From assembly GCF_011745365.1 (NCBI RefSeq), contig NW_024468917.1:992001-1056000 (forward strand): a stretch of 64,000 bases of DNA, given 5' to 3'. Position numbers and translations under genes: made by a program. The notes below the pieces were generated by a model. The model was not told the DNA's origin and did no database searches. It saw nothing but the letters and a program-made list of their open reading frames with translations. Below are positions 2,729-53,023 of the stretch, piece after piece. The stretch's first letter is position 1, and each line of letters opens with the position of its first letter. The stretch comes from Cryphonectria parasitica EP155 (lineage: Eukaryota; Ascomycota; Sordariomycetes; Diaporthales; Cryphonectriaceae).

Positions 2729-3228
2729 GGTTGGTAATGGTGTGTTGAGTCGTTGTCATGAGGTCAAGCTCAGCAGTCCAGCAGCACGGCCTGGGTGGAC
2801 AACAGGCAGCAGGTGGTAAGTACTTAGTGAGTAGAAATGTGAGCATTCAGGATTCGCAAAGAGGGTTAGGGTTCCTTGTGTAAGAATATCTGGGCCACCA
2901 GTGTTCCCAGTCTTTGCTCAGCAGGCAAACCTGATCATATCTTGAAGGAGAAAGTCGTAGATCCCAACTGATATCATATTATGGCGAATTTGACTAGGAA
3001 GAGTGCGACCGGAACAGAGTGATATTCAAGTATCAGGGACAAGCAGCAATTGGTAACTTCCCAGAGGGGAAAATGGGGGATGCAAAAAGAAGCACCTGTT
3101 TAGGCTCGACATCTCCACCACATAAACACTCAACGAGCAATCAAACAGAAAACTACTGCTTTTGAACGGGTTTCACAAATACAAAACAATGATCCAAAAA
3201 GTATTGTGGAGGGAGAACTGAAAAAGAT
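2729..3228. other. Promoter-side intergenic region
   Basis: Non-coding stretch between the Zn2Cys6 gene start and the tRNA gene. It should hold the promoter of the regulator; no individual site can be assigned by eye. Confidence 0.4.
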
Positions 3229-3299
3229 GATCTGCACAGGGGTCGAACCTGTAATCTCCTGATTCGTAGTCAGACGCCTTGCCATTGGGCCAGCAGACC
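3229..3299 (-). tRNA. tRNA-Arg (anticodon ACG)
   Basis: A 71-nt cloverleaf without an intron. The acceptor strands GGTCTGC and GCAGATC pair over 7 bp with one G-T. The D arm starts GGCCC, the anticodon loop is CTACGAA with ACG at 34-36, and the T arm carries ACAGGTTCGACCCCTGT (B box). ACG (inosine at 34) reads CGU, CGC and CGA arginine codons. Confidence 0.95.
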
Positions 3300-3681
3300 A
3301 ATTTGATTGGGAGCCGTCTTAATCGTGGGGTTTATAACTCCAATGTTTGTGAGCATGCTCCATTTCATTCTTGGATGCCTCTATGATTAATGAGGAACAA
3401 TTCCCTTTACTGTCCTCTCAAATTTATAAAAAGACTTTTGTGTTAACTTCATCTCTTCCTCGTAGTATTGTAGATATGCTCCCTTTCACCAGTCACGGAC
3501 CACTAGTTTTGTCTGCGATCAGCCCCTAACCCTCATCCAGAGCTCAGCGCACAGACCACCCTGACGACGTCGAGACCAATCCCGCCCTTGCGGTTTGTCA
3601 AGTGCATCCGACAGACCTCTGTGCATCAACCCCAAACAAGCAACCCCAAGGCGCAAGATCACCACCAATTGCCCCGTCAAG
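3300..3681. other. Intergenic between tRNA-Arg and NDUFB7
   Basis: AT-richer spacer without an ORF of note; it should contain the NDUFB7 promoter and 5' leader. Nothing else recognised. Confidence 0.4.
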
Positions 3682-16183: not shown

Positions 16184-18184
16184 TCACTTCTTCCTCTGCC
16201 CCAACCTAGGCAACTTCACAGGCAATAATACCAAAAAGCTCACCACCGCAAACCCCACACAGCACAAGAACGTAGTCCGCACAGCCGCCTCGTAACTCTC
16301 CACAACCTGCTCCCGCACCATGCCACCCAGTTTCGCCACAGCCTCGACGCTCTCCCTCACCCTCTCCACGACCTCCTCTCGGCCCACGAACCCAGCCGCG
16401 CGCGCCGCCTCGTCCGTGACATACAGGTCCAGATACCGCCACAGGGAATTCTGCACGACAAGGCTCGACCCGGCGATGCCAAGCACCATGCCGACGCTGC
16501 GCCAGAGGATCAGGGTGCTCGTGACGGCGGCCTGCTCGCGCTGCTCGCTGGCGGCGAGGATGGCCATGAAGGTGCCTGGGAACTGGAACCCCTGGCCCAG
16601 GGCGTGCGGGACGAGACAGAGGAGGTAGGCGGGCATGGGCCAGCCCCTCTGCATGGAGGAGAGCGCGATGGTGCCGAGGAAGAAGCCGTAGGTGCCCAGA
16701 GACATGGGCCACTTGAGGCGCCTGGTCCAGCTGACGAGGAACCCCGTGGCTGTGCCGGCGGTGCTGGACACGACGGTGATGATCATGAGGCAGAGGCCCG
16801 AGGTGGTGGCCGAGGTGAGGAGGACGGCCTGGAAGAAGAGGGGCATGTTGAAGATGATGGCGTTCATCATGAAGGCGGCGAGGGCGTTGCTGAAGATCAT
16901 GTTGGCGTGCGGGCTGCGGCGGATGAGGTACAGGGGCATGATGGGGCGGACGGCGTTGGTCTCGGCGCGGAGGAAGAGCGGGAAGGCGATGCAGAAGATG
17001 GCGAGGGAGGCGAGCACGAAAGGGTGGGTCCAGGGGAGGACGTTGCCGCCGAGGTTGAGGCCCAGGATGAGGAAGGTGATGGCGCTGGTGAGGAGGAGGG
17101 AACCCTGAAAGTCAAAGGTCCTCATGGCCTGGAGGAAGGTGGCCTTCTGGGTACCAGAAGTGAGGCCGAGGTCGTGCGGGATGGTGAAGATGGTGAGGCC
17201 CACGCACAAGAGCAGAGGAGGCACCTGGATGCCAAATTCCCAGCGCCAGCCCAGATAGTCCGCCATGAACCCCCCCAGCGCGGCACCGAGGGTCGAGCCC
17301 ACGCCATAGACCGCATTGATATAGCTCTGGTAGGCACCACGATGCTCTATGGGCACCAGGTCGCTCACGATGATGCTGCCCAGGATCATGACGCCTCCCG
17401 CCCCCAGACCACAGACCGCCCGCGCCGCGATGAAGCTCACCATGCTCTGGGCGAGGGCACACCACAGCGTGGCCAGGGCAAACACCAGCATGGTGAAGAT
17501 GTATGGCGTCTTGCGCCCGATGGTGTCGGACAGGCTTCCTAGGAGCGGCTGGAAGGCCGTCGAAGTCAGGAGGAACGCCGTCGACAGCCACGACGCCGAG
17601 TTGGAGCTGTGGAAATAGGACGTGATGACAGGGTGCGAGGACGCCATCAGCGTCGAGTCAAAGTTGGAGACGAAGTTGAGCGCCAGGACGTTGCCGAAGA
17701 TCAACCAGAACCGCCCGTATGACATGCCTCCGTGAAAGGGGCTCAGAGCAGCCTCCTCATCACTATCATCGTCATCATCCACAGCCTCCTCTTCCCCGTC
17801 CCCGCTGCACACAGACGTGCGTCGGCTAAACAACACCTTGTGCGAGCCATGGCTTGTGCTGTATTTGCGCTCACCCCTCAGCAGCGGCGTTTCGCTCGAC
17901 TCGGGTCCCAGGAGAGGGCCTGGCGTGTAGGATGTCGATTTGGTCAGGAGCAGGTCGAAGTCGTCCGGGTCGATAATGTCGTCGGGCTCGGCCCGCTCAT
18001 CGTCATGGGCCTGTTCTTGTTGCCGCCTCTCAGTATGCACTGATGCGCTGGCTCCAATCAGGGGCGTCTGCTCATCTGGAGCAGCATTGATCCCATGCTG
18101 CTGCTGCTGCTGCTGCTGCTGCCGCCGCTGCAGCGGACCGATCCCGTTGTGGATATGATGACTGCTTTTGCCTGGAGAACTCAT
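16184..18184 (-). CDS. MFS transporter, DHA2 type, Fnx1/Vba-like
   Basis: Predicted multi-spanning drug:proton-antiporter-like transporter of the vacuolar basic amino acid group (Fnx1/Vba-like), by similarity of FDSTLMASSHPVITSYF and the following SASWLSTAFLLTSTAFQPLL. The signature loop SDTIGRKTP between TM2 and TM3 is intact. About 14 membrane segments run from residue 155 to the C-terminus. The N-terminal 150 residues are cytosolic, with a polyglutamine run (CAG repeat, 18093-18121) and acidic clusters. Single exon, 666 aa, normal length for this family with an extended N-terminus. The substrate (basic amino acids at the vacuole, or a toxic compound) is an inference. The start is the ATG before the Q run. 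Confidence 0.9.
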   Translation of the reverse strand: MSSPGKSSHHIHNGIGPLQRRQQQQQQQQHGINAAPDEQTPLIGASASVHTERRQQEQAHDDERAEPDDIIDPDDFDLLLTKSTSYTPGPLLGPESSETPLLRGERKYSTSHGSHKVLFSRRTSVCSGDGEEEAVDDDDDSDEEAALSPFHGGMSYGRFWLIFGNVLALNFVSNFDSTLMASSHPVITSYFHSSNSASWLSTAFLLTSTAFQPLLGSLSDTIGRKTPYIFTMLVFALATLWCALAQSMVSFIAARAVCGLGAGGVMILGSIIVSDLVPIEHRGAYQSYINAVYGVGSTLGAALGGFMADYLGWRWEFGIQVPPLLLCVGLTIFTIPHDLGLTSGTQKATFLQAMRTFDFQGSLLLTSAITFLILGLNLGGNVLPWTHPFVLASLAIFCIAFPLFLRAETNAVRPIMPLYLIRRSPHANMIFSNALAAFMMNAIIFNMPLFFQAVLLTSATTSGLCLMIITVVSSTAGTATGFLVSWTRRLKWPMSLGTYGFFLGTIALSSMQRGWPMPAYLLCLVPHALGQGFQFPGTFMAILAASEQREQAAVTSTLILWRSVGMVLGIAGSSLVVQNSLWRYLDLYVTDEAARAAGFVGREEVVERVRESVEAVAKLGGMVREQVVESYEAAVRTTFLCCVGFAVVSFLVLLPVKLPRLGQRKK

Positions 18185-19400
18185 TATGATGCTATTGTTG
18201 GCGAGGAATCATGTGAATGTATGGCACCATGTGTTGTACATGTATTGTATACACTTTCCCCCCTCTTTGTTTTCCTTTTCTTCCTTTTTCTTCCTCCTAC
18301 TGTTTATCCGAACCCAAGAATGATGAGGCTATGTAGCAAAAGATGACTCTCCAGCAAATATACAATAAATGTGTTTACACCCGTGACTCAAGCAGTGACC
18401 GATGCCGGGACGGTGTGATGCTTGACCTCGGTTGATGTTGACCCGGATTGAGTGGTGAGTAGAAGCCAGAGACAAAAACGCAAGGATTGGTGAGTGGTTA
18501 TTCACTGAATGAAGACATCGTAGAAGAATTGGATTATACGGTGACTTTTTCCCTCCGAAAACTCTTTTCTTGTTTGGTTCACCGTAACTTGGAACCACAT
18601 GAAGAAGAAATTACCAAGACGTTATAGAAACCAAAATGCGGGGCTTTGGCTAGGAACAAGAATCTACCGATCTCTTTTGTCAGATTTATGCGGGTCCTCG
18701 TGATTGAGGCACATTGAAAAAGAATGGGGTGGTGTGAGGAGAAGGGGAAAAGGCTGCTTAAAAACGGGGCCCTAGTTTTCCCTCTGTCTTTACGATCGAT
18801 TATGGGGCCTCCTTGTTCGGTAATAGCATCCATCTATCTTGGCTACTGTCTGTCGTGTTTTGAGGACGAGCTGCGGTGACAGACGACAAACATAACGAGC
18901 CAAGTCATCATAAGACATGCATGCCAGATCGCAATCGATTTCGAAATTCTTTCTGCTATTTTTGCTATGGCCATCATCCATTATGTTGTGTTACGTTGCA
19001 TTTGTTGCTCGATGTCCACACTTATGGACAAATCTCCTCGTCTTCTCTCACACACAGGTGGGGGAACCTTGAAACCTGTAAAGAATGGTGTTATACGGAA
19101 CACAGAAGGAAAAAAACAATGCTACACTCTTTCTTTCCTTTGCGGCCATGTTTTCCTGCAAACACAAGCCGTGAACGCCGCCCAAACCGCAAGTAGTCAC
19201 TCCCCTCCCCTTCCCGTGTTGATGCATATTGTTTGAGTACGATAGGTCAGATGGCCATAATTCAATCAGGCCCCCGCATAGCAAGCGCGTGCCAGTAAGT
19301 TTTGTTTTGTTGTCTTTTGCCATCCCGAACGAAGGTCCCGGCATTCCTCTTTTCCATCCACCAAATGTTCCTCTTCCTCCACTTCCCACCACGATCATCA
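18185..19400. other. Intergenic, no gene supported
   Basis: Spacer between the MFS start and the NUP133 stop. Short frames on both strands show nothing recognisable; it should include the MFS promoter and the NUP133 3' UTR. Confidence 0.45.
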
Positions 19401-37592: not shown

Positions 37593-37879
37593 TTAGAACC
37601 TAGAGCTCAACCGTGAATAAGCCCTCCTACTCCCAACGCCTTCCTCCAACTCCACGCCCGACGCATTCCCGCCCATCAACGGCGTGCCTCTAGCACTTAC
37701 TCTCCCAGCCTCTTCAAAGTAAAAATGGTCTCCATCCTCCCGATACGACAACCTATACGGCACCCCCAGGTTCGCCTTGTGGTCCAGCCGCACCGACCTC
37801 TGGTCCATCTCCGGCGTCCTGGCCCCTCCTCCTCCTCCTCCTCCTCCTCCTCCTCCTCCAGCCATCCCACCAGGCCCTG

Positions 37880-37914
<35 letters not shown>

Positions 37915-39179
37915 CCCGGCCCAGAAACCGCCGGGGCCGGTGGCCGCGACGTCGCCAGCGCAAACAAGCTCGTCGGCTCCAGAAAGTCCCGCACGATCCC
38001 GACCCTGCAGAGGTAGGCCAGACACAGCAGGTTGAGGAGGAAGCAAAAGGCCAGCACGGGATAGAACACGCCCTGCCAGGGCTCGGTGTGCCACGAGGCG
38101 TACTCCTGCGAGCGCACGCGGGCGTGGAAGCTGACCTCGGCCGGGGCGGCGAGGATCTTGGTGCCCGCGGCGTCGTCGTCGTCGTCGTCGTCGTCGTAGT
38201 CCCAGTAGGGGTCGAAGGGGGTGTTGATGGCCCCCGTCACGAGGGTGTTTGCGACCATGGCGGCGAGGGCCTCGGCGAGGGAGGGGAGGGTGGCGTTGAG
38301 GGTGGGCTGGTGCAGGGCGAGCTCGCTGAGGATGCGGGCGTTGGAGGCGTTGTTGCTCTCGATGCCGCCGTTGAGGCTGATGGACAGGGCCCAGAGGGCG
38401 GCCATTGTTTTCCAGTCCTGGTCGAGGGTCAGGGTGTAGCTGCTGCTGCTGCTGCCGGTGTCCTTTTGCTGCATAAAGTGCACGTAGGCGTCCGGGTTGG
38501 ACTTGTAGTAGTCTGCGGCGTTGGCCGGGGTGTAGTCGACGTCCTGGGCGCAGTCGACGCTCATGGCCATGCTCGCCAGCCCGCTGACGTTGAAGCGCGT
38601 GCTGCACTGGATGGCCTGCCACGACTGCAGCCCGCACAGGGTGTAGTCGGCCGTCGTGTTGCCCTTGCTGAGGACGTAGATGGCGTCCGTGGCGTTGGCG
38701 TAGTCCGGGCTGAGCGAGTTGACCATCGTGTTGAAGGCGATGGGGTACCGCTGGAACACGGGCGGGCGGCGCTGGTACTGGGCGCCCCACCTGAAGACGT
38801 CGTCCACCACGGTCGCGTTGAGCCAGTTGCTGGCGTCGTCGTCGTCGGCTGCGCTGTTGTTGAAGGCGGGCACGTCTAGCTCCCAGCCGCTCCACCCGAC
38901 CAGCCCGTCACCTGTCGTGGGCTTGTTGACGATGGCGTTGGGCCAGGTCGTGTAGACCAAGGGCGCCAGCTCGGTTTGGTTCATGTTGACGCAGAGGACG
39001 TTGACTGCTGGGGAGATGACGCTTGCGGAGATGTTGTAGGAGCCTACGCCGTCAAGGTCGGAAGGCTGCAGGATTCCGTTGAGGGTTCGGTTGGTGGCAG
39101 CTTTGTAGACGCCTGTTACAGGTTCATTGATGAGTTACTTTGAGTGTCTTTATATCCCTTCTTGGGTGAGGTTGAAGAA

Positions 39180-39232
<53 letters not shown>

Positions 39233-39249
39233 AAGAGAGAGAAAGAGAG

Positions 39250-39324
<75 letters not shown>

Positions 39325-40827
39325 AAGAGGCCTTATTTTTGGTATGCTTACCTGGATGTGGCATCGCCAACGAGACATTGTTAATCACCCGCTGATGAGT
39401 TTGATAATTCTGCTGCACATCCGAGTACTGCGTCTCGATCCACGTCCCGACCATGGTCACGTTGTCATACAAGACAGACTGCACCTGTGGTCGATGCTTG
39501 ATCTCCAGGCTCGAGTTGCGCGTGTCCCGCCACGTAGTGAAGAAGGTCACAAAGTCGGAGAAGGAGTCGCCCGAGTACTGCACGGCCCGGCAGGACGAGC
39601 CCGCATTCACGTCAAACATGGTCGAGATGGGCGTGGCGCAGTCGTCCTGGACGTAGGTGGGGTTGGCATAGGACGCGAGGATGGTGCTCTTGAGGGTCTT
39701 GTGCTGCCAGCGGCTGAACTGCAGCTTGGGCCGGACCATGGTGTCCGAGGCTGTCGTGTAGAACAGGGCCACCAGCGTGGCCAGGATGCAGGTGATGCCG
39801 AGCAGGGTGCGGCCCACGTAGCGGAGGGCGCGGAAGCTGGCCAGGACAGTCCCCGGCTGCATGATCCACGTGCGCATCGTCACCTCGGCCATGGTCATGC
39901 CCTGGTGCGTGGCAATCGCCCGCCTCGTCAGCACCTGGCCCACAAAGGCCACCGCCACGGTGACAAAGGAGATCTCGATGGTCTTGGCGATGATGGCCGT
40001 GAGCACGTTGGCTGAAGACAGCGAGATGGGCCCGTTGGTCGACACGATGCGGCCCCAGCGAGGCTCCACGATGGCTGTGACCAGCCACACTCCGCTCAGC
40101 AGCGTTGAGTAGATGGACATGCCGAGGAGCCACAAGGACCGCCAGCTGGTGCGCTTGATGCGGAAGTGCGTCGATGGTGTCCGAAAAGGCAACTTGGCTT
40201 GCTCGTTTAGAGTCGATCTGAAGGCGCCGTAGTCACCGTCCTGGCCAAGGCCTTCTTCTCCTCCTCCTCCTCCTCCTCCTCTTCCTCGGCCAGTCGTGGG
40301 CAAGTTGTTGTGGATGGTGTTATGCTCATGATCCTGTGGCCCATCTTGATAGTCCTCGTTGCGCATCTGAAGAGAGTCCATGCTCACGGCGTCCATGTCT
40401 CGCTCCCTGTTGCTGCCTCTGGCATTTCGCTCGTCGTCCAGCGGCGTGTACACGCCCCTCAGCGCGCCCTTGTCCCAGGCAGTGTGGATCGAGCTCCCAA
40501 AGTCAACAGGACCACCACTGTGTTCACTCCTCGGGCTCAGGTCGGGTGATCCATCTGAAGTGAGCACGTAGCCTGCATTAGCTGGGGTGACGCTTTATAT
40601 ATCTTCCTCCAGGACTTCAGAGAGCGAGAAGACAGACCTTCAGAGGGATCACGCGCTTCTTGTTCCGTGGCACCATCTATCGGAGCTGCGTTCTCGATGA
40701 GGCCATGATGAGACGCCTTTCGGGCGATGGGGCCGGGGTCTACTTCGATCCCCAGGCCTGAGATGGTGCGTGCCGGTTTTGGTGAGCTGAGAAGGTGGTG
40801 GCGGTCGACATGGTCGGCCGACGCCAT
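37593..40827 (-). CDS. Large glycosylated multipass membrane protein, unknown function
   Basis: Three exons, 40827-40638, 40572-39352 and 39112-37593, all in phase, encode 976 aa. The N-terminal 180 residues are hydrophilic. Membrane segments follow at about SLWLLGMSIYSTLLSGVWLV, a second at LTAIIAKTIEISFVTVAVAF and a third at LLGITCILATLVALFYTT; a fourth (YPVLAFCFLLNLLCLAYLC) is near the C-terminus. Between the third and fourth lies about 500 residues of probable extracellular sequence with many N-X-S/T sequons and paired cysteines. The C-terminal tail has poly-Thr and poly-Gly runs. The second intron (39113-39351) is largely a GA repeat. I do not recognise an enzyme or named domain; the topology resembles fungus-specific cell-surface proteins of unknown role. 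Confidence 0.8.
39179..39329. repeat. (GA)n/(GAAA)n polypurine repeat
   Basis: About 150 bp of purine-only plus strand, lying inside an intron of the membrane-protein gene, so its transcript carries a long CU tract before the 3' splice site. Confidence 0.95.
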
Positions 40828-45548: not shown

Positions 45549-47088
45549 GATAAATGATTCCAAGTGATGGTGCTTGGAGGTGTATGGAAGAGAGGCGGTG
45601 GCCAGGAATGGCTTGATGGAGGTGATCGAGGACCTATTGAGGGAGAGGTTGGAACTGTTGCTCGAGGGCATAGGAGGGCATACGATGCAGCGCACAATGT
45701 GTAGCAGTCAGGATTCTTAGGAAGATGGCAGTCCTCAAGGTCGAGACGATGATGATGAGGGCTGAAAGGCAAATGAGGGGAAATGAGCATACTTACCTGA
45801 TGTATTGTTGCTGCTGATGGATAATGGCCTAATATTTGTTGATGTTTTTTCGGTCGTTGATTGATTGTTGTTTGTGGGATGGGAGGAGTTGCAAGATGGA
45901 AAAAGAAAAGGAAAAAAAGAGGTCAGTCAAATAGCTCGAGTTGTTGGTTGACAACCAGATTGATGGCTGGCAACGAGGCTGCAGCCGGAGGCCCCACCAG
46001 AGGTTTTTCATCCCAAGTTGCCCAGGTGACAGGCAGCCGTCAAGTACAACCAAATCCTGTGACTTGATCAAGTGAAATGGCATTATTTTTTACCATAGTC
46101 ATCACAGCCCCCTTCCAGTTGCCAACCAACACACCAGTCCTGTTGATGCGCAGCCTGTCTGAGGGACTCCGCCCGTCCGCGAAGTGGCAAGGCTGAACTT
46201 GGACTATTCTGTGCTGAGATGGGCATCCTCGTGCAGAATTTCTGGTGGCCCTGCTGACCAACAGATAGACATAAATGGAAATGATTGAATCGTAAGTAGA
46301 CCAGTGACGAAATTTAACATGTTACTTGCACAGTATGACTTCACCTAGGGAAGACTCTCTACCGGTCTACTCGTCGTTCTGAGGCCATTCCCAGGCCTGT
46401 ACGACCCAAAGCTTCATGGATACCAGTCACACATAGAGATAAACAAACCATCAATTATTTTCATCTGTTTTGTGGCCTCTGTACCATAGTGACCGTCTGA
46501 CAATCCCATAAGTAGACAGATGCACATGTGCCGTCACTGGTCTGTTGGTCAACACGTAGCTCGTCTGACCTTGGAGTCCGTTCACATGCCTTTCCATAAA
46601 ATTCTGCTATGCTCATCTTGAACACCAACTTGGTTCTCGTCATCTATCAAAATGACCATATGTAAACAATTAAGTTTCAAGATCCACAAAAGAGACTGAT
46701 GGGATGTAAAATCCTGTCAGGACAAGCATGTTCGAATCAACAAGACTCGATTGGCGCAACGGTCTCCAGTTGGACACAAGTTCTACCAGCTGCGATCGCA
46801 TGAACAAACCAATGTGCCCATCTTTCAAGTGCTTTGCGGCAGGCATATATATTCAGGATCTCTTGATTAAATTCTCTGTATATTTATATGCAAGAAAAAG
46901 TCGCTTACCAATGCTACCAAGTATGTACACACTCAAACACCCCCCGCCCAGCCTGTCGCAAATGCCCCAAACCCCAATGTATCTATCACCCAGCCATCCA
47001 TCCATCCATCCATCCATCCATCCCACCAGGTATACCAATCCGTCAATATAATGACAAAAGAAAACAACTAAACATTCATGAGGAGGGC

Positions 47089-47123
<35 letters not shown>

Positions 47124-47130
47124 ACAAATG
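43537..47130. other. Repeat-rich gene-free region
   Basis: No gene is supported. It contains an ATG/GAT repeat at about 43536-43566, a 250-bp tandem duplication (43.8-44.2 kb), a GT repeat (45328-45357), a GA repeat (about 45526-45548), a CCAT repeat (46993-47024) and an AAC repeat (47087-47122). A minus-strand donor-like site (CAG then GTAAGT) near 45795 could belong to an unrecognised non-coding or 5'-leader transcript. Confidence 0.5.
43766..44210. repeat. Tandem duplicated unit with 50-bp hairpin-forming core
   Basis: Two diverged copies about 250 bp apart. The core occurs at 43805-43854 and 44055-44104 and differs at one position. It begins AAAAGTGTA and ends TACACTTTT, a perfect 9-bp inverted repeat, with an inner CGGAC/GTCCG pair. 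A downstream segment (CGAGAGCAGGAATCG at 43939 and 44180) and an upstream one (AGTACGATGAAA) are also shared. Confidence 0.85.
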
Positions 47131-50100
47131 TCACCGCTCCTCGGGTATCGTAGACCCCGTCCTATCCTGCCCACCACCACCAACCCCATCACTCGTCATC
47201 TCTCGGTGCTCACAACGAGGACAATCACTAACCGTCGACCCAGACCCTTTCCTCCGCCAATCCCTCTTCTTGCCCAGCGTAAGCTTATTCATCAGCTCCA
47301 TCGCGATAGCCCCGGCGCCCCTCTCCGCGCCCGCGCCCGCGCCCACCGACGACGACCCCGTCCGCTGCCTCCTCTGCTGCCTCTGCCGCACGACCTCGTC
47401 CGCGCTGAGGCTCTGGTCCCTCGTACTGCTAGGCCCGCTCTCCGCGCCCTCCAGCCCGCCCAGCCCGCCGCCCGCGCCCACAGGCCGCCCTCGGAACACC
47501 GGGTCGACCAGGACCCGCGCGTCGCGCACGAGCGTCAGGTACAGCGGGTAGGCCAGGGTGAACAGGAGCAGCACGACCACGACGATAAAAGCAAGCTGTG
47601 TCTTTCCGGCGCTGACGACGGCGTACATGACAAAGGGCCAGATGGCAGGCCCGCTGGCGCCCATGGTGAGCCAGGCGGCGGCGCGCTTGGTGCGGTCGCC
47701 CTGGCCCCTCAGGCCGATGGCGAAGATGAGCGGCCAGAGCGGGCCCTCGGCAAAGAAGAAGACCAGCACGGGGATGGCGATGATGTTTGGGTTGGTGCTG
47801 GTGGTGGCGGGCAGGACGACGCACACGAGGGCGGCGAGGGCCGAGAGGGCCGAAAAGAGGGCCAGCATGGTGCGCGGGGAGGGGACGAGGCGGGCGTGGG
47901 GGTGGCGCACGCCGTACCAGGCGATGTGGGCGGCGTTGAACCGCGAGACGGCAAAGACGGCGTGGGCGACGACGATGTAGTCGTTGATGGAGAGGGAGAG
48001 GCCCGGCGGCCCGGCGGCGCGCTCCTGCTCGCCGCCTGGGAGGAAGGCGTCGACCAGGCTGCCGAAGAAGATGGACATGGACTCCTGGGCGGCGACGTAG
48101 GTCCACTGGGCGAGCACGGCGAGGATGATGCAGACGGTGCGCAGCTGGAGGCCGCCGATGCTGCGCTTCGTGGCGTCCACGGGCAGGCGCTGGGCGGCGC
48201 GGCCCAGGTCGGCGTCGCGGACCTCGGGGAGCGGCATGTAGTAGAAGAAGAGGGCCAGGGCGACGCAGAAGAGGGTGATGGCCAGGTACGTCCACTGCAC
48301 GTCGAGCAGCTCGTCCGAGGTGGCCCGGGACCCGGTGCCGAGGTTGACAAAAAAGACCTTTTGCGCGAGCACGCCGCTGACGACGGTGGCGACGCCCTGG
48401 AACCCCTGCGCGATCAGGATGCGCACCTCGGCGTACATGGGCGGGCCGCAGAGGATGATAAAAGGGTTGGCGGCTGTCTCGAGCACGGCAAGGCCGAACC
48501 CGACGACAAAGTTGCTGATGAGGAACCCTGGGAACGAGGTGAGGACGGCAGAGGGCCAGAACATGATGGTGCCGACGCCGTAGATGCAGAGACCCAGGAT
48601 AAACGTCGCCTTGAAGCCGCCCACGGGGTCACGGTTCTTGTATCGCCGCCGGGGGTGGAACCGAGAGTGCTCGTCGTGCCGCAGAACCCACTCGCCAATC
48701 ATGAGCGGGCCAAAGAAGTAGCCGCCGCCAAAGTAGATGCTGGTGAGGCCGACGGTCTCGGCTGTGCTCATGTCGGCGATGTCGGCGATGACGTTGTTGA
48801 GCGTGTTGAGCAGGCCGTACGAGAACCCCCACAGCAAGAACAAGGTCGACACAATGATGCAGTACCGGAGCGAGTCGGCCGTCGACGTCTTGATCATGCT
48901 CTTGGGCCGTTTCATGTTGACGAACCCGAAATAGACTGCGCTATCGCGTCTCGTCCTGTGAGACATCCACGCCGTCGTGGCTGTCGAGTTGAATCGGTCC
49001 CTTGTGCCGGCCGTCGCTGTCGCCGTCGCCGTCGTCATGTCGGGCGTCGTGAGGAAGTCGAGCAGGTCCATCTCTTCTTGCTGGTGCTCATTTCCCGGGG
49101 AGAAAGAAGACGACTCCTCTGGCTGGGACTGAGGCTGTGCTCTAGCACTAGTAGCGGCAGCAGTAGGAAGAGGAGGAGAAGGCACAGGAGGCAAGGTAGC
49201 TGCAGCTGCAGCTGCAGGACTAGCAGGCGGTCCGTCGCGAGACATGGCGGGCTCGGTGCCGATCTGCGTTCCCGGGCTTGTCTCCTTGTCGCTTCCGGTG
49301 GCATACGTCGAGATGATGGAATTCTGCGTCCCATCTGGGCCGAGGATGGCGGCTGGGAGGATCTTGATGATCAGGGGCTTGAGGGTCGGCACACAGGCGC
49401 AGATCATGCCGATGTTCACCTCGACGGCGGACCACATCAGAGACAGCGAGGCGTTCCAAGGGAACTCGGGGCTGTCGCCAAAGATGGCGGACGGGTCGCT
49501 GGACGGGTCGGTAGACACGGTGGCGATGGCCTGTTGCAGGTAGTAGATGCGCACCACATCGACGATGGTGACAAAAATACCGAGCGAGAAGGTGATGACG
49601 AGTATGTACTTTTGCCGTTTGGGAAGCCTCATGCCGGTGAGCACAGGGATCGGCAGGGCCAGGATAGCGAGGTCCGTGACGATGTTGACGGGCGCGCTGC
49701 AGATAAACTCGGTTAGGAGGGGAATGCACTTGGGCTGGCCAGAGTAGGTTGTGCTGAAGGAGGCCGCGACAGGGTGGCATTGAAAGATATTCAGCATGGT
49801 GAGGACCACACCGGCGACGTTGACGATGACTGCCACGATCCAGGAGGCGATGCGGAGGATCTGCTGGGTATTCTTTGCGAGTCGCAAGTAAAAAATCAAG
49901 ATGGATGTCTTGAGAGCCATGAGAGCAGGATTCTGTATCATGTATAACAAACATACACAAGTATATATGGTCAGCATTTTGAATGATCCATACTTTTTCT
50001 GCTACACACAAAGACATAAACCTGGTGGATGATGAGTGAGGGGGCCACAAACGTAGAGCACAGAAAAGACATATTCCGTCTTTCTGAGCGGAAGAAGATC

Positions 50101-50352
50101 CGCATCTGCAATGTCCTCATCATGTCTACCCAGACCAAAACTGGTGCCGACATCGATGGTCGTGGTGAGGCCGGCCGCCAGAACCCAGGCGATAATGATT
50201 AAGTAGTCGTCCCAGCTAACTCTCTTGACGATCCATGCGCGACAGATCATCCTAGCCATGAAGAAGAGAGTCCCTACAACGAGCGTAGAGACGGTGACCG
50301 CAAAGACCGCGGGCCCGCGGTCCGGCGTAGACCCCGTTGACGCGATGGCCAT
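47131..50352 (-). CDS. Fusion: PTH11-like 7-TM rhodopsin domain + fucose-permease-type MFS transporter
   Basis: One protein of 1033 aa from exons 50352-50053 and 49932-47131 (donor GTTTGT, acceptor ATACAG, phase 0). Residues about 15-290 form the fungal rhodopsin-domain/PTH11-like membrane module: VSWDDYLIIIAWVLA, the post-intron NPALMALKTSILIFYLRL, CSAPVNIVTDLAILALPIPVL, and the last helix with WSAVEVNIGMICACVPTLKPL. A cytosolic linker (about 290-450) is Ala/Pro/Ser-rich and contains YFGFVNMKRPKSM, typical of the tail of such receptors. Residues about 455-960 are a complete FHS-family MFS permease: TLFLLWGFSYGLLNTLNNVI, FGGGYFFGPL, then NFVVGFGLAVLETAANPF. The C-terminal tail is basic and charged. 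Exon 2 is open across the join with no stop, so the fusion does not depend on a predicted intron. Ligand, cargo and membrane are unknown. Confidence 0.88.
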
Positions 50353-53023
50353 TTTTGGCTATGTCGCAGAGAGAGAAGAGGGGGGGGGGGGGGGAAGAGA
50401 GTTGTTGACCACAAAGGGTCCTGGTCTAAGGAGGTAGGAATCGATAGCTACGAGAGATAATTTGGAGGATCGGATGAAGGTGCCATGATCTTTTGCTGAA
50501 GGGCATCGAGAGTATATATCGAGAAGCTCTGTCGACGTGAGGGATCCTTCGTACCAGGAGCAAGGCTTACGACCTTGCGAAGCCAGTGTAATGAAGGTTT
50601 TCGACCAAGGAGCTGACGGAGATGTGCTCCGGTATGAAAGTATGCTTTAGTGTATGTGTGTTTGTGTGTGTGTTTGTGTGTGTGTTTGTGTGTGTGTGTG
50701 TGTCTTGACTCGGACCAGCAATTCACAGCAGGGGGATTTCAGCTCAGCGCGCGGGTGATATCCGGGCCGGCGATGGTCTTCTCTCACTCTCTCACTCACT
50801 CTCTCTCTCTCTCCTTTAAAGTCCCGAGTTTTGCACAGGGGTGAAGTTCATCATGAAGCTGAAAGAAGGGGGGGGCTTCTTCAATTCAAGGTACTGGTTG
50901 GTGGAGGCCGCGCTGATCGAGAACCAGTTGCCTGGCTCGTTAGGCGAACAATGAATGTGTCATGCAGACAAGACGAGACGTCGAATATATCCGCAAACGA
51001 GAGTTTGTTGCTCGACATTGACTCGTACCAGTGCTCGGATGCGAACAGGCTGAGACTTCTGACAGTTGAGGGGGTTGAGGGGGCGAGAGGAGGACCAGAG
51101 ACCAAGCAGGGCGAAAAAGAAGGGAGAGGAGAAGGAAAGGAGGATAAAAAGAGGCAAGAAACGACCTGGGGGCGACGGCTGACGTGTGTCCTCAAGGCAG
51201 TAGATGTCTCGGCGAAGGCGTCGTTGGACACGAGCATGGGTGGTAGCAGTGTGTTTCTAAAATTTTTTGTTTTTTTTTCCCTTTCCCTTTCGTCCTTTCA
51301 GGATTTGCGCAGTCTTTTCGTACGTAGCCTACATTGGCCTCGAGCAATTGTCACACATTGGCTGGCGGAGTAAAGTCGGTGTGGTCACGGTCGCATCGAT
51401 TAGTTAAGAATGGTATTAGAAGGGGGCGGGGCGGTAAATAAAAAAAAATAAGAAAAAAATTGGGAGAGGGTGGGTGTGAGAGAAAATATAGGTGACACGA
51501 GGTAATAATACTGAATAAGCAACAGGAGCGTGTATGTGTGACGGACGCAGAGGCCGTGCAGCTGTGAGAGTTGGGGTTGGGACAGGAATGTTTAGAAAGG
51601 ATTGATGATGAACACAGGGAATAGAAGGTACATCAAATCATGAACATGTACTCGCGGAGGGGACCCATGTGACCCGTCGCTCAATTGTGTCGAGAGCTGG
51701 GATCTGCCCTGTCCCATGGTTTGGATGCTAGCAGAAGAGAGAAGAAAAGAGATGCCTCAACGACGCGGATCGCTGGGCGCTGGGGCAGTGTGGGTGCCAA
51801 TGCGATGACCCGGATCGTTGATGGCAGGGCGATCAAGGCTTGCTGGGTGAAGATCTATACTGCTACGTACTTGGAGACGAGATGTACCATTGTAAAAATT
51901 CTTTTTCGTTCTATCTTTCTTCCCCTCCTCTTCCCCACACCTCCTTCTTCCCTCCATCAACTTTAGCCAAAGGCGTGGTCAGGTCGAGGAAAAGGGTTGC
52001 GAAGCTGCATTGGACCGGTCTTAGCGATTCAAGGCAGCAATGAGTGAATTTGTCTGGGAGGGGATGGGTTTGATTGAGGGTGAGTCCAAGCACAAGAGGA
52101 ATTAAGATTTTGATAATGCGCTTGGCCCTGTCCCCCCTCTCGCCCCCTCCCTGTCTCTTTTTTTTATTATTTTTCATTCCTTTTTCCCGTTCTGCTGTAC
52201 CGGCATGGCGGGTAAGGCAGCTGACTAGGACTTGGCCCGTCTGCTGGTCTGTTTGAGTCAGGCCAGACGACGTGCGAGATTGGTTACTTCCTGCGCCGCT
52301 TGTTTGCCGTTCAGCCGTTTGGGCGTCAAGGTACGAGTTCTATGGTACAATGTACGGTACTTTAAATCAGGGCCTGATCAGGTCAGGTCAGGTCAGGTTG
52401 CAGCAGATCGACGGAATCGATGAGCAGCAATGGACACGGGCCATTGGCAGGAATGAAGGTGCAGGATTTGTCGAGCCCCGGCCTGGCCCCCTGCTCAAAG
52501 GTGGGATGATGGCGATAACCGAATTGCCTCTTGCACATCGTGGTCCATTGGGCTGGAGGGTCTCAAGCCCCTGGGAAAGACAAGGTGCTGTGGAAACACT
52601 TCCGCACTGGTGACGATGGGGAATTGCGTGATGCCAAATGGCGCACATGTGCAAACAGAGTACGCCCCCCCCCCCCTACTACGTACTTTACCCGGGTACT
52701 GCACCGTTCAGGCGGATGAGGGGGCAGACGGCAGGGAAGCGGCGAGAGAAATATGCTTTTGTCTTCGATGGATTAGCTTGTGCCCCAGACAATTCAGTCT
52801 TTGAGGCTCGGACTCGGACAGCAGATTCTGTGGCTATAATTTCACGAGAGAGGAAGCTAAAAAGAAGAAGAAAAGGAAAATGAAGGGGAAAAAAAAAGGG
52901 GGAAAGTTTCACTTAAGGAACATTCGATCTGATCAGGTTTCTGAAGCCATTCCCTTCCATCTCTGCTTGGGAATCTAGACATCATATTGGCCCTGACCCG
53001 TAGACCCTGAAGAGCTGGGCATT

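What the first reader, a model, noticed from the sequence alone, without database searches (positions are those of the whole stretch)
47131..50352. Receptor-transporter fusion: PTH11-like 7-TM domain joined to a complete fucose-permease-type MFS
Seen: one reading frame runs from the last six helices of a rhodopsin/PTH11-like module through a low-complexity linker into a 12-TM FHS permease, with no stop or needed intron at the join. Known: PTH11-like proteins are candidate fungal receptors (Pth11 in Magnaporthe acts in surface sensing), and FHS permeases carry sugars. Inference: the protein may couple sensing to sugar uptake as a single-chain transceptor, or the receptor half may regulate or localise the carrier. 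Both halves keep their family motifs, which argues against decay.
Basis: partly seen in the sequence, partly recalled or inferred. Interest (0 to 1): 0.88.

Follow-up and report, generated by a model that had tools for sequence, protein, structure and literature searches.

The report
Conserved fungal receptor–sugar-carrier fusion protein
One fungal gene makes a single 19-helix membrane protein that joins a 7-helix receptor-like domain to a sugar-carrier-like domain; distantly related fungi share the join, and here the carrier lacks an acidic residue that its bacterial relative needs for proton-driven uptake, which hints that it may sense sugar as well as, or instead of, carrying it.

Summary
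The fusion is real. On the minus strand, 50352-47131, two exons (one 120-bp intron) encode a 1033-aa, 111-kDa protein: Pth11-like 7-TM domain (PF20684), 163-aa linker, 12-TM FHS carrier, tail. It is no local accident: all 120 listed hits carry PF20684 and 111 also PF07690; one search adds Eurotiomycetes and lichen fungi. Two linker motifs, without a significant match elsewhere in this genome, are conserved across these classes. Fused carrier domains form one clade with one single-domain row inside. A 3.5-kb contig encoding both halves without the intron suggests one mRNA (inferred). New: the residue aligned with FucP Asp46, its H+-coupling carboxylate, is Asn in the window protein and 112 of 120 hits, but Asp in 47 of 48 picked single-domain carriers and 115 of 120 hits. 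FucP D46N is transport-deficient yet responds specifically to fucose. I favour a sugar transceptor biased to sensing; an ordinary carrier with a regulatory domain is close behind. No held paper that I searched describes the fusion.

The parts
50053..50352 (-). exon 1: start codon, short N-terminus (predicted outside), TM1, TM2 and the first residues of TM3 of the Pth11-like domain
   Evidence: PF20684 match 37.3 bits in this frame; splice join VFSVLY|NPALM agrees with relatives
49933..50052 (-). intron, 120 bp, GT...AG, inside TM3
49354..49932 (-). exon 2, receptor part: TM3-TM7 of the Pth11-like (Fung_rhodopsin) domain
   Evidence: PF20684 E 2e-44; helices; coordinates
48865..49353 (-). linker, predicted cytosolic; mostly low-confidence (disordered) in the orthologue model; two conserved motifs
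   Evidence: no other significant match in the genome
49036..49059 (-). linker motif DFLTTPDM (short helix in the model of an orthologue)
48895..48933 (-). linker motif YFGFVNMKRPKSM; in the 57 of 67 rows where a regex found both this motif and WGF of carrier TM1, the spacing was 34 residues in 54 and 85 in 3
47539..48864 (-). FHS-type 12-TM major facilitator domain
48805..48807 (-). Asn476 codon, aligned with FucP Asp46 (H+ coupling)
48478..48480 (-). Glu585 codon, aligned with FucP Glu135
48082..48084 (-). Glu717 codon in TM7: by regex E in 119 of 120 and 116 of 120 hits, V in 47 of 50 picked single-domain FHS rows
47962..47964 (-). His757 codon in TM8: by regex H in 106 of 120 and 107 of 120 hits, Q in 49 of 50 picked single-domain rows
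47134..47538 (-). C-terminal tail, 135 residues (22 K/R, 17 D/E), low complexity, predicted cytosolic

Best explanation
The gene encodes one 19-TM polypeptide: a class XIV (Pth11-like) 7-TM domain with its N-terminus outside, a cytosolic linker, and an FHS carrier with both ends inside (that the frame encodes one fused protein, and that the fusion is old, follows from sequence; I put this part at about 0.97). Most likely mechanism (inferred): it is a nutrient transceptor. The carrier half binds a monosaccharide from outside; in most of the Sordariomycete relatives seen, this one included, loss of the Asp46-type carboxylate weakens or removes proton-driven uptake, so the carrier's substrate-driven movement serves mainly as a signal; the linker and/or the 7-TM half pass that signal to cytosolic partners, perhaps G-protein/cAMP signalling. 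In the Eurotiomycete and lichen forms Asp is mostly kept and uptake is probably still proton-driven. The confidence given is for the transceptor mechanism.
For: Fusion conserved: all 120 listed hits (898 in all) carry PF20684 and 111 also PF07690; of the 120 listed hits (1490 in all) 96 carry both, and the other 24 have 151-195 residues before the D46 column, ending in the fused-type linker motif. Named full-length fused proteins come from Aspergillus, Penicillium, Thermoascus, Xylographa and Pleopsidium. Fused carrier halves form one clade (SH-aLRT 100) with one row of single-domain type inside. Linker motifs are conserved across classes although the linker as a whole is not (0.22 identity between groups against 0.50 for the 7-TM half), as expected of docking motifs. 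Topology by K+R counts fits an N-out 7-TM joined to an N-in carrier. The proton site aligns without shift: FucP 46 and 135 fall in the columns of window N476 and E585. N in 112 of 120 hits; D in 47 of 48 picked single-domain carriers (the other, P0185, lacks TM1); S/G/A in 5 of 120 hits. The tree needs at least 9 D/non-D changes, and every non-D row lies inside the fused clade, P0180 counted in it. FucP D46N is called transport-deficient yet gives a fucose-specific charge movement (PMC8784342, passages); Asp46 is believed essential for H+-dependent transport and Glu135 perhaps involved in substrate recognition (PMC3824880, passages). In yeast Pho84, Asp358 to Asn cuts transport to 20% or less without affecting signalling (same passages).
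Against: No functional data for any member were found. Asp occurs inside the Asn clade in 8 of 120 hits (a 6-row clade with three named Cytospora species, Biscogniauxia marginata, and one JGI row), so the site switches. One search lists about 50 carrier columns that differ between single-domain and Sordariomycete fused forms, so D46N is not singled out by statistics. Nearly all fused forms carry an acidic Glu in TM7 that might stand in as a proton site. In FucP, D46N was studied as a mutant; that a natural Asn acts alike is inferred. No G-protein contact was tested.
Confidence: 0.42

Rival explanations
1. Ordinary carrier with a tethered helper: the FHS half is a working sugar transporter (proton-driven through Glu585/Glu717, or a facilitator), and the 7-TM half controls trafficking, turnover or clustering and is not a sugar-triggered receptor.
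For: Carrier TM1-6 is about as conserved as the 7-TM half (mean identity 0.71 against 0.72 within Sordariomycete rows); the Glu of FucP E135 is kept in 120 of 120 hits; a TM7 Glu is nearly universal in fused forms; Asp recurs inside the Asn clade; the model matches FucP best.
Against: Loss of the Asp46 residue in 112 of 120 hits and scattered loss elsewhere in the fused clade. The 7-TM half is as strongly conserved as the carrier, more than a mere tether would need.
Confidence: 0.38
2. The receptor half is the working part, with an unrelated outside ligand, and the carrier half is a retired scaffold.
For: Pth11-like receptors act in surface and host sensing, with unknown ligands (PMC13308352, passages); the carrier C-half is the less conserved helix block (0.58 within, 0.31 between groups).
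Against: The E135-type Glu, 12 helices and many invariant carrier positions are kept across three classes; a retired scaffold should have decayed.
Confidence: 0.12
3. Two separate products: an internal start, second promoter or cleavage in the linker yields receptor and carrier apart.
For: Methionines lie in the linker and near carrier TM1; most of the linker has low model confidence. RNA and protein were not examined directly.
Against: P0016 (Logan, 3507-bp contig, 996 aa) holds both halves with the intron removed and is 98.3% identical over 891 aa to P0021, whose 891-aa frame on a 10,018-bp contig starts right after the intron: read as a spliced transcript. This is inferred: the source does not say RNA or DNA, and two other joined rows lie on longer contigs (P0026, 16,224 bp; P0049, 10,667 bp), so intron loss occurs or exon-aware gene calls are mixed in. 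Linker motifs are conserved as parts of one frame.
Confidence: 0.05
4. Gene-model or assembly artefact: two neighbouring genes merged.
For: The opposite strand is open too, and the public model of this gene (P0002) drops 6 residues of TM3 and 38 of the linker, so models here are imperfect.
Against: The join needs no splice here and recurs in the 120 listed hits and in distant classes.
Confidence: 0.02

Closest known systems
Class XIV fungal receptors, Pth11 and Pth11-like (PF20684)
   Same: 7-TM domain, PF20684 match far above cut-off
   Different: no CFEM domain found; a 12-TM carrier follows the 7-TM domain. Term look-ups in four surveys showed no such fusion (PMC12842992, PMC13308352, PMC4683645, PMC5526305; passages or zero hits); PMC12842992 mentions MFS_1 only as a gene family that grows and shrinks along with Pth11-like genes
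FHS carriers, type FucP of E. coli (L-fucose:H+ symporter)
   Same: fold (3o7p/3o7q best PDB matches, TM-score 0.78 and 0.80 by target length), Glu135
   Different: Asn for Asp46, Glu for Thr275 in TM7, His for Met305 in TM8; fused; substrate unknown
Yeast transceptors such as Pho84 (and the sensors Snf3/Rgt2, recalled)
   Same: carrier fold with signalling; Asp to Asn at a proton site separates signalling from transport in Pho84 (PMC3824880, passages)
   Different: those signal through a lone carrier (Snf3/Rgt2 with a long tail, recalled); here a whole second membrane domain is attached
Neurospora cellobiose transceptors CDT-1/CDT-2
   Same: described as both sensors/transceptors and transporters, in a Sordariomycete (PMC12892961, passages)
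   Different: the passages seen mention no receptor domain; another MFS family (recalled)
Other natural receptor-transporter chimeras, such as algal bestrhodopsins (recalled, no call)
   Same: sensor domain and membrane conduit in one chain
   Different: opsin plus anion channel, unrelated families

Membership tests
Class XIV Pth11-like receptor | PF20684 profile match above gathering score | tested here: met
   152.4 bits (exon 2) and 37.3 bits (exon 1) against 27
Class XIV Pth11-like receptor | seven TM helices, N-terminus outside | tested here: met
   7 hydropathy peaks with K+R 4, 3, 4, 13 in inside and 1, 3, 1, 1 in outside loops; 7 helices in the orthologue model; orientation is inferred
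Class XIV Pth11-like receptor (Pth11 proper) | N-terminal CFEM domain | tested here: not met
   no CFEM hit in the Pfam scan; only 14 residues precede TM1. So Pth11-like, not Pth11 proper
Class XIV Pth11-like receptor | signals through heterotrimeric G protein | not testable with these tools
   no functional data
FHS permease | 12-TM MFS fold closest to FucP | tested here: met
   (model of the orthologue P0013)
FHS permease | conserved cavity carboxylate Glu135 | tested here: met
   E585; 120 of 120 hits
FHS H+ symporter | proton-coupling carboxylate Asp46 | tested here: not met
   N476; 112 of 120 hits N, 8 D; 115 of 120 hits D
L-fucose:H+ symporter (fucP equivalog) | TIGR00885 score above curated cut-off | tested here: not met
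   117.5 bits against 280.4
Nutrient transceptor | substrate binding triggers signalling | not testable with these tools
   needs bench work

The most novel reading that the evidence does not exclude
An ancient family of natural receptor-carrier chimeras, older than the split of Sordariomycetes, Eurotiomycetes and Lecanoromycetes, in which an FHS sugar carrier supplies the ligand pocket for an orphan class XIV receptor, and in Sordariomycetes has been turned from a proton symporter into a dedicated sugar sensor by losing its coupling aspartate.
Probability: 0.27. Interest if true: 0.87.

Novelty: new variant of a known kind. Interest (0 to 1): 0.62.

Why it matters
Pth11-like receptors are a large class of filamentous ascomycetes whose ligands are mostly unknown (PMC13308352, passages). 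A member welded to a carrier with a recognisable sugar pocket gives a concrete ligand guess and an assay, and natural Asp- and Asn-type orthologues offer a ready comparison of transport against signalling without engineering. It would also be a rare case (recalled) of a receptor-like and a carrier domain in one chain.

Tried and rejected
Searching the gene on the plus strand failed (stops): it is on the minus strand. A purely local fusion or model error was dropped. A normal L-fucose symporter was dropped (N476). A Sordariomycete-specific TM10 Glu (position 829) was rejected as a one-column alignment slip: read ungapped back from the conserved Pro, the Glu lines up with the Glu of the single-domain paralogues. 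Other columns of that list near gaps may be slips too. A sugar-catabolic gene cluster: ten of the 40 large frames listed were scanned and none was of that kind, though one (16184-18208) is another MFS/sugar-transporter-like carrier. Pams1 of Magnaporthe (PMC9500233, passages) is a 14-TM MFS protein, not this fusion. Viral structure library: generic MFS matches, of no use. The 7-TM half alone was not modelled (one of two structure jobs unused) and its fold was not compared with solved receptors; the PDB search of the full model is dominated by MFS, and the sequence search of the 7-TM part found nothing significant (best E 0.038). DNA of relatives was not available, so no dN/dS.

On re-checking: the one non-Asp (gap) row and the one TM7-Glu row in my single-domain pick are the same protein, P0185, which lacks TM1 and may be a truncated fused form; P0180, a single-domain-type row with Glu at the Asp46 column, was left out of that pick but is in the tree. 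One row labelled 'fragment with linker' (P0123) has no sequence before TM1 and another (P0126) only the end of the linker, so their label is a guess.

Full report
WHERE IT IS. The window is a 64-kb piece of a 43.8-Mb fungal genome, contig C9 of 2,924,153 bp. The nearest database protein, P0002 from Cryphonectria parasitica EP155, lies on a contig of the same length, so I take the source to be that strain (Diaporthales, Sordariomycetes). The gene is on the minus strand: exon 1 50352-50053, a 120-bp GT-AG intron, exon 2 49932-47131, giving 1033 aa and 111.1 kDa. The splice join VFSVLY|NPALM is the one seen in relatives. The public model P0002 (989 aa) lacks 6 residues in TM3 and 38 in the linker.

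WHAT IT IS MADE OF. The first ~290 residues are a Pth11-like 7-TM domain (PF20684, 152.4 bits in exon 2 and 37.3 bits in exon 1, cut-off 27) without a CFEM domain. Then come a linker of 163 residues and a major facilitator domain of the FHS type: MFS_1 itself is under its cut-off (24.6 against 33.4 bits), but TIGR00885 fucP gives E 8e-34 (below the equivalog cut-off), and the two FucP entries are the only PDB sequences matched up to E 10. A tail of 135 residues follows. Hydropathy shows 7 peaks, the linker, then 11 peaks, carrier TM2 falling under the threshold; positive charges fit N-out/C-in for the receptor half, which is what a carrier with its N-terminus inside needs. AlphaFold2 on a complete Diaporthe orthologue with 66 fused relatives (mean pLDDT 72.3, pTM 0.73; residues 302-416 under 50) gives 7 + 12 long helices, a linker without structure but for one short helix at the first motif, and FucP as best solved match.

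IS THE FUSION REAL. An open frame alone proves little here: the other strand is open for 949 aa as well, and 79 of 5000 shuffled linkers stayed open. Conservation settles it. A full-length search gave 898 hits; all 120 listed carry PF20684, 111 of them also PF07690 by my count of the list, from Diaporthales, Sordariales, Coniochaetales, Xylariales, Glomerellales and others (order names recalled from genus names). The 778 unlisted hits were not seen. A profile of 22 more distant fragments gave 1490 hits; of the 120 listed, 96 carry both domains, among them full-length proteins of Aspergillus, Penicillium, Thermoascus, Elaphomyces and the lichen fungi Xylographa and Pleopsidium (Xylographa checked as Lecanoromycetes), and the other 24 have the fused-type linker before the carrier. 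In 67 complete or near-complete fused proteins that I chose from the 240 hits, the linker as a whole is poorly conserved, but two short motifs, DFLTTP and YFGFVNMKxPKSM, are kept: F373 and L374 in 94%, F416 in all 67 (P0013 numbering). A regex for the motifs, stricter, found the first in 49 and the second in 63 of 67. The linker has no other significant match in the genome (best other E 0.2). Three other FHS loci in the same genome read as single-domain.

ONE MESSAGE? Of the 360 proteins returned, 57 start at the residues just after the intron, as expected of intron-blind calling on genomic DNA, and 125 have the upstream exon joined, many of them annotated gene models. P0016 is telling: 996 aa on a 3507-bp Logan contig, with exon 1 joined, 98.3% identical over 891 aa to P0021, which starts after the intron on a 10,018-bp contig. 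The simple reading is a spliced transcript across both halves in a Diaporthe-like fungus. The source does not state RNA or DNA, and joined rows on longer contigs (P0026, 16,224 bp; P0049, 10,667 bp) show that a joined frame need not mean a transcript, so this is an inference.

HISTORY. A tree of 93 carrier domains (hand-picked from the proteins of the three searches, plus the window protein and FucP; quick method, with warnings of long branches; the D46 column left out) puts all forms labelled fused in one clade, SH-aLRT 100, with 15 of 16 single-domain carriers outside. The sixteenth, P0180, has a single-domain N-terminus but the fused-type carrier; it sits on a long branch and its place is unsure. 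The labels are mine: two of the 14 'fragment' rows, P0123 and P0126, show little or no linker. The fusion looks single and older than the split of the three classes seen. I did not make a tree of the receptor half.

THE CARRIER'S PROTON SITE. FucP D46 and E135 align exactly with window N476 and E585. Of the hits 112 of 120 have N and 8 D; all 120 keep E. Of the hits 115 of 120 have D, 2 S, 2 G, 1 A, all with E. Of 48 single-domain carriers that I picked by eye from the 120 rows, 47 have D and 1 a gap; the gap row, P0185, lacks TM1 and may be a truncated fused form; the 72 others (fused fragments, short rows, rows not picked, and P0180, which has E there) are left out of that count. The three single-domain paralogues of this genome read LLDVLN or LLDTLN at this place. 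The tree needs at least 9 D/non-D changes; every non-D row lies inside the fused clade, and D recurs within the Asn clade, most clearly in a 6-row clade with three named Cytospora species. Fused forms also share a Glu in TM7 (119 of 120 and 116 of 120, against V in 47 of 50 picked single-domain rows; the one E is again P0185, two are C) and mostly a His in TM8 (106 and 107 of 120, against Q in 49 of 50; regex counts, so a few rows may be misread). So the ionisable residues of the cavity were rearranged in the fused line, perhaps before the fusion, since P0180 has the TM7 Glu.

WHAT THAT MEANS. Published passages: FucP D46N has inactivated steady-state H+ translocation and is listed as transport-deficient, but gives charge movements specific for L-fucose (PMC8784342); Asp46 is the putative H+ residue (PMC4882079); Asp46 is believed essential for proton-dependent transport and Glu135 might take part in substrate recognition (PMC3824880, citing Dang 2010, which is not held). 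In the Pho84 transceptor Asp358 to Asn leaves signalling and removes most transport. A carrier that keeps its binding Glu but has Asn at the proton site, welded to a receptor-type domain, is what one would expect of a sensor-biased transceptor. Against this: the site flips back to Asp, about 50 other carrier columns also differ, and the TM7 Glu may compensate. The mechanism is thus a lean, not a result.

LITERATURE. Searches of the held papers (listings) and term look-ups in four surveys of fungal receptors (passages only) showed no description of a Pth11-like/MFS fusion. Databases do show the two domains together, so the architecture is visible but, as far as I could search, undiscussed. Most subscription papers, preprints and supplements were out of reach.

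VERDICT. Observation confirmed with small corrections; interpretation partly supported; a conserved, apparently undescribed receptor-carrier architecture with a natural change at the proton site.

Noticed in passing
window 46867-49716, plus strand: A 949-aa open frame lies antisense to the gene; probably a by-product of the high G+C of the gene (0.62 against 0.54 for the window).
   Followed up: partly
P0180 (Logan protein, 522 aa; no window coordinates): A carrier with an ordinary single-domain FHS N-terminus falls inside the fused clade and has the TM7 Glu and a Glu at the Asp46 column; it may be a pre-fusion form or a later loss of the receptor half.
   Followed up: partly
window 50053-50070 and the linker 48865-49353: The public model of this gene (P0002) lacks 6 residues of TM3 and 38 of the linker; the 6 are present in relatives.
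   Followed up: yes
window 46990-47123 and 50650-50703: Simple repeats flank the gene: CCAT and CAA arrays beyond the stop codon and a GT array upstream.
   Followed up: no
window 16184-18208, minus strand: Another MFS carrier (MFS_1 148.8 bits, Sugar_tr 50.7 bits).
   Followed up: no
window 37593-40594, minus strand: Two overlapping large frames (513 and 492 aa) without any Pfam match at E 1e-4.
   Followed up: no
window 3226-3300, minus strand: tRNA-Arg (acg) gene, the only tRNA found.
   Followed up: no
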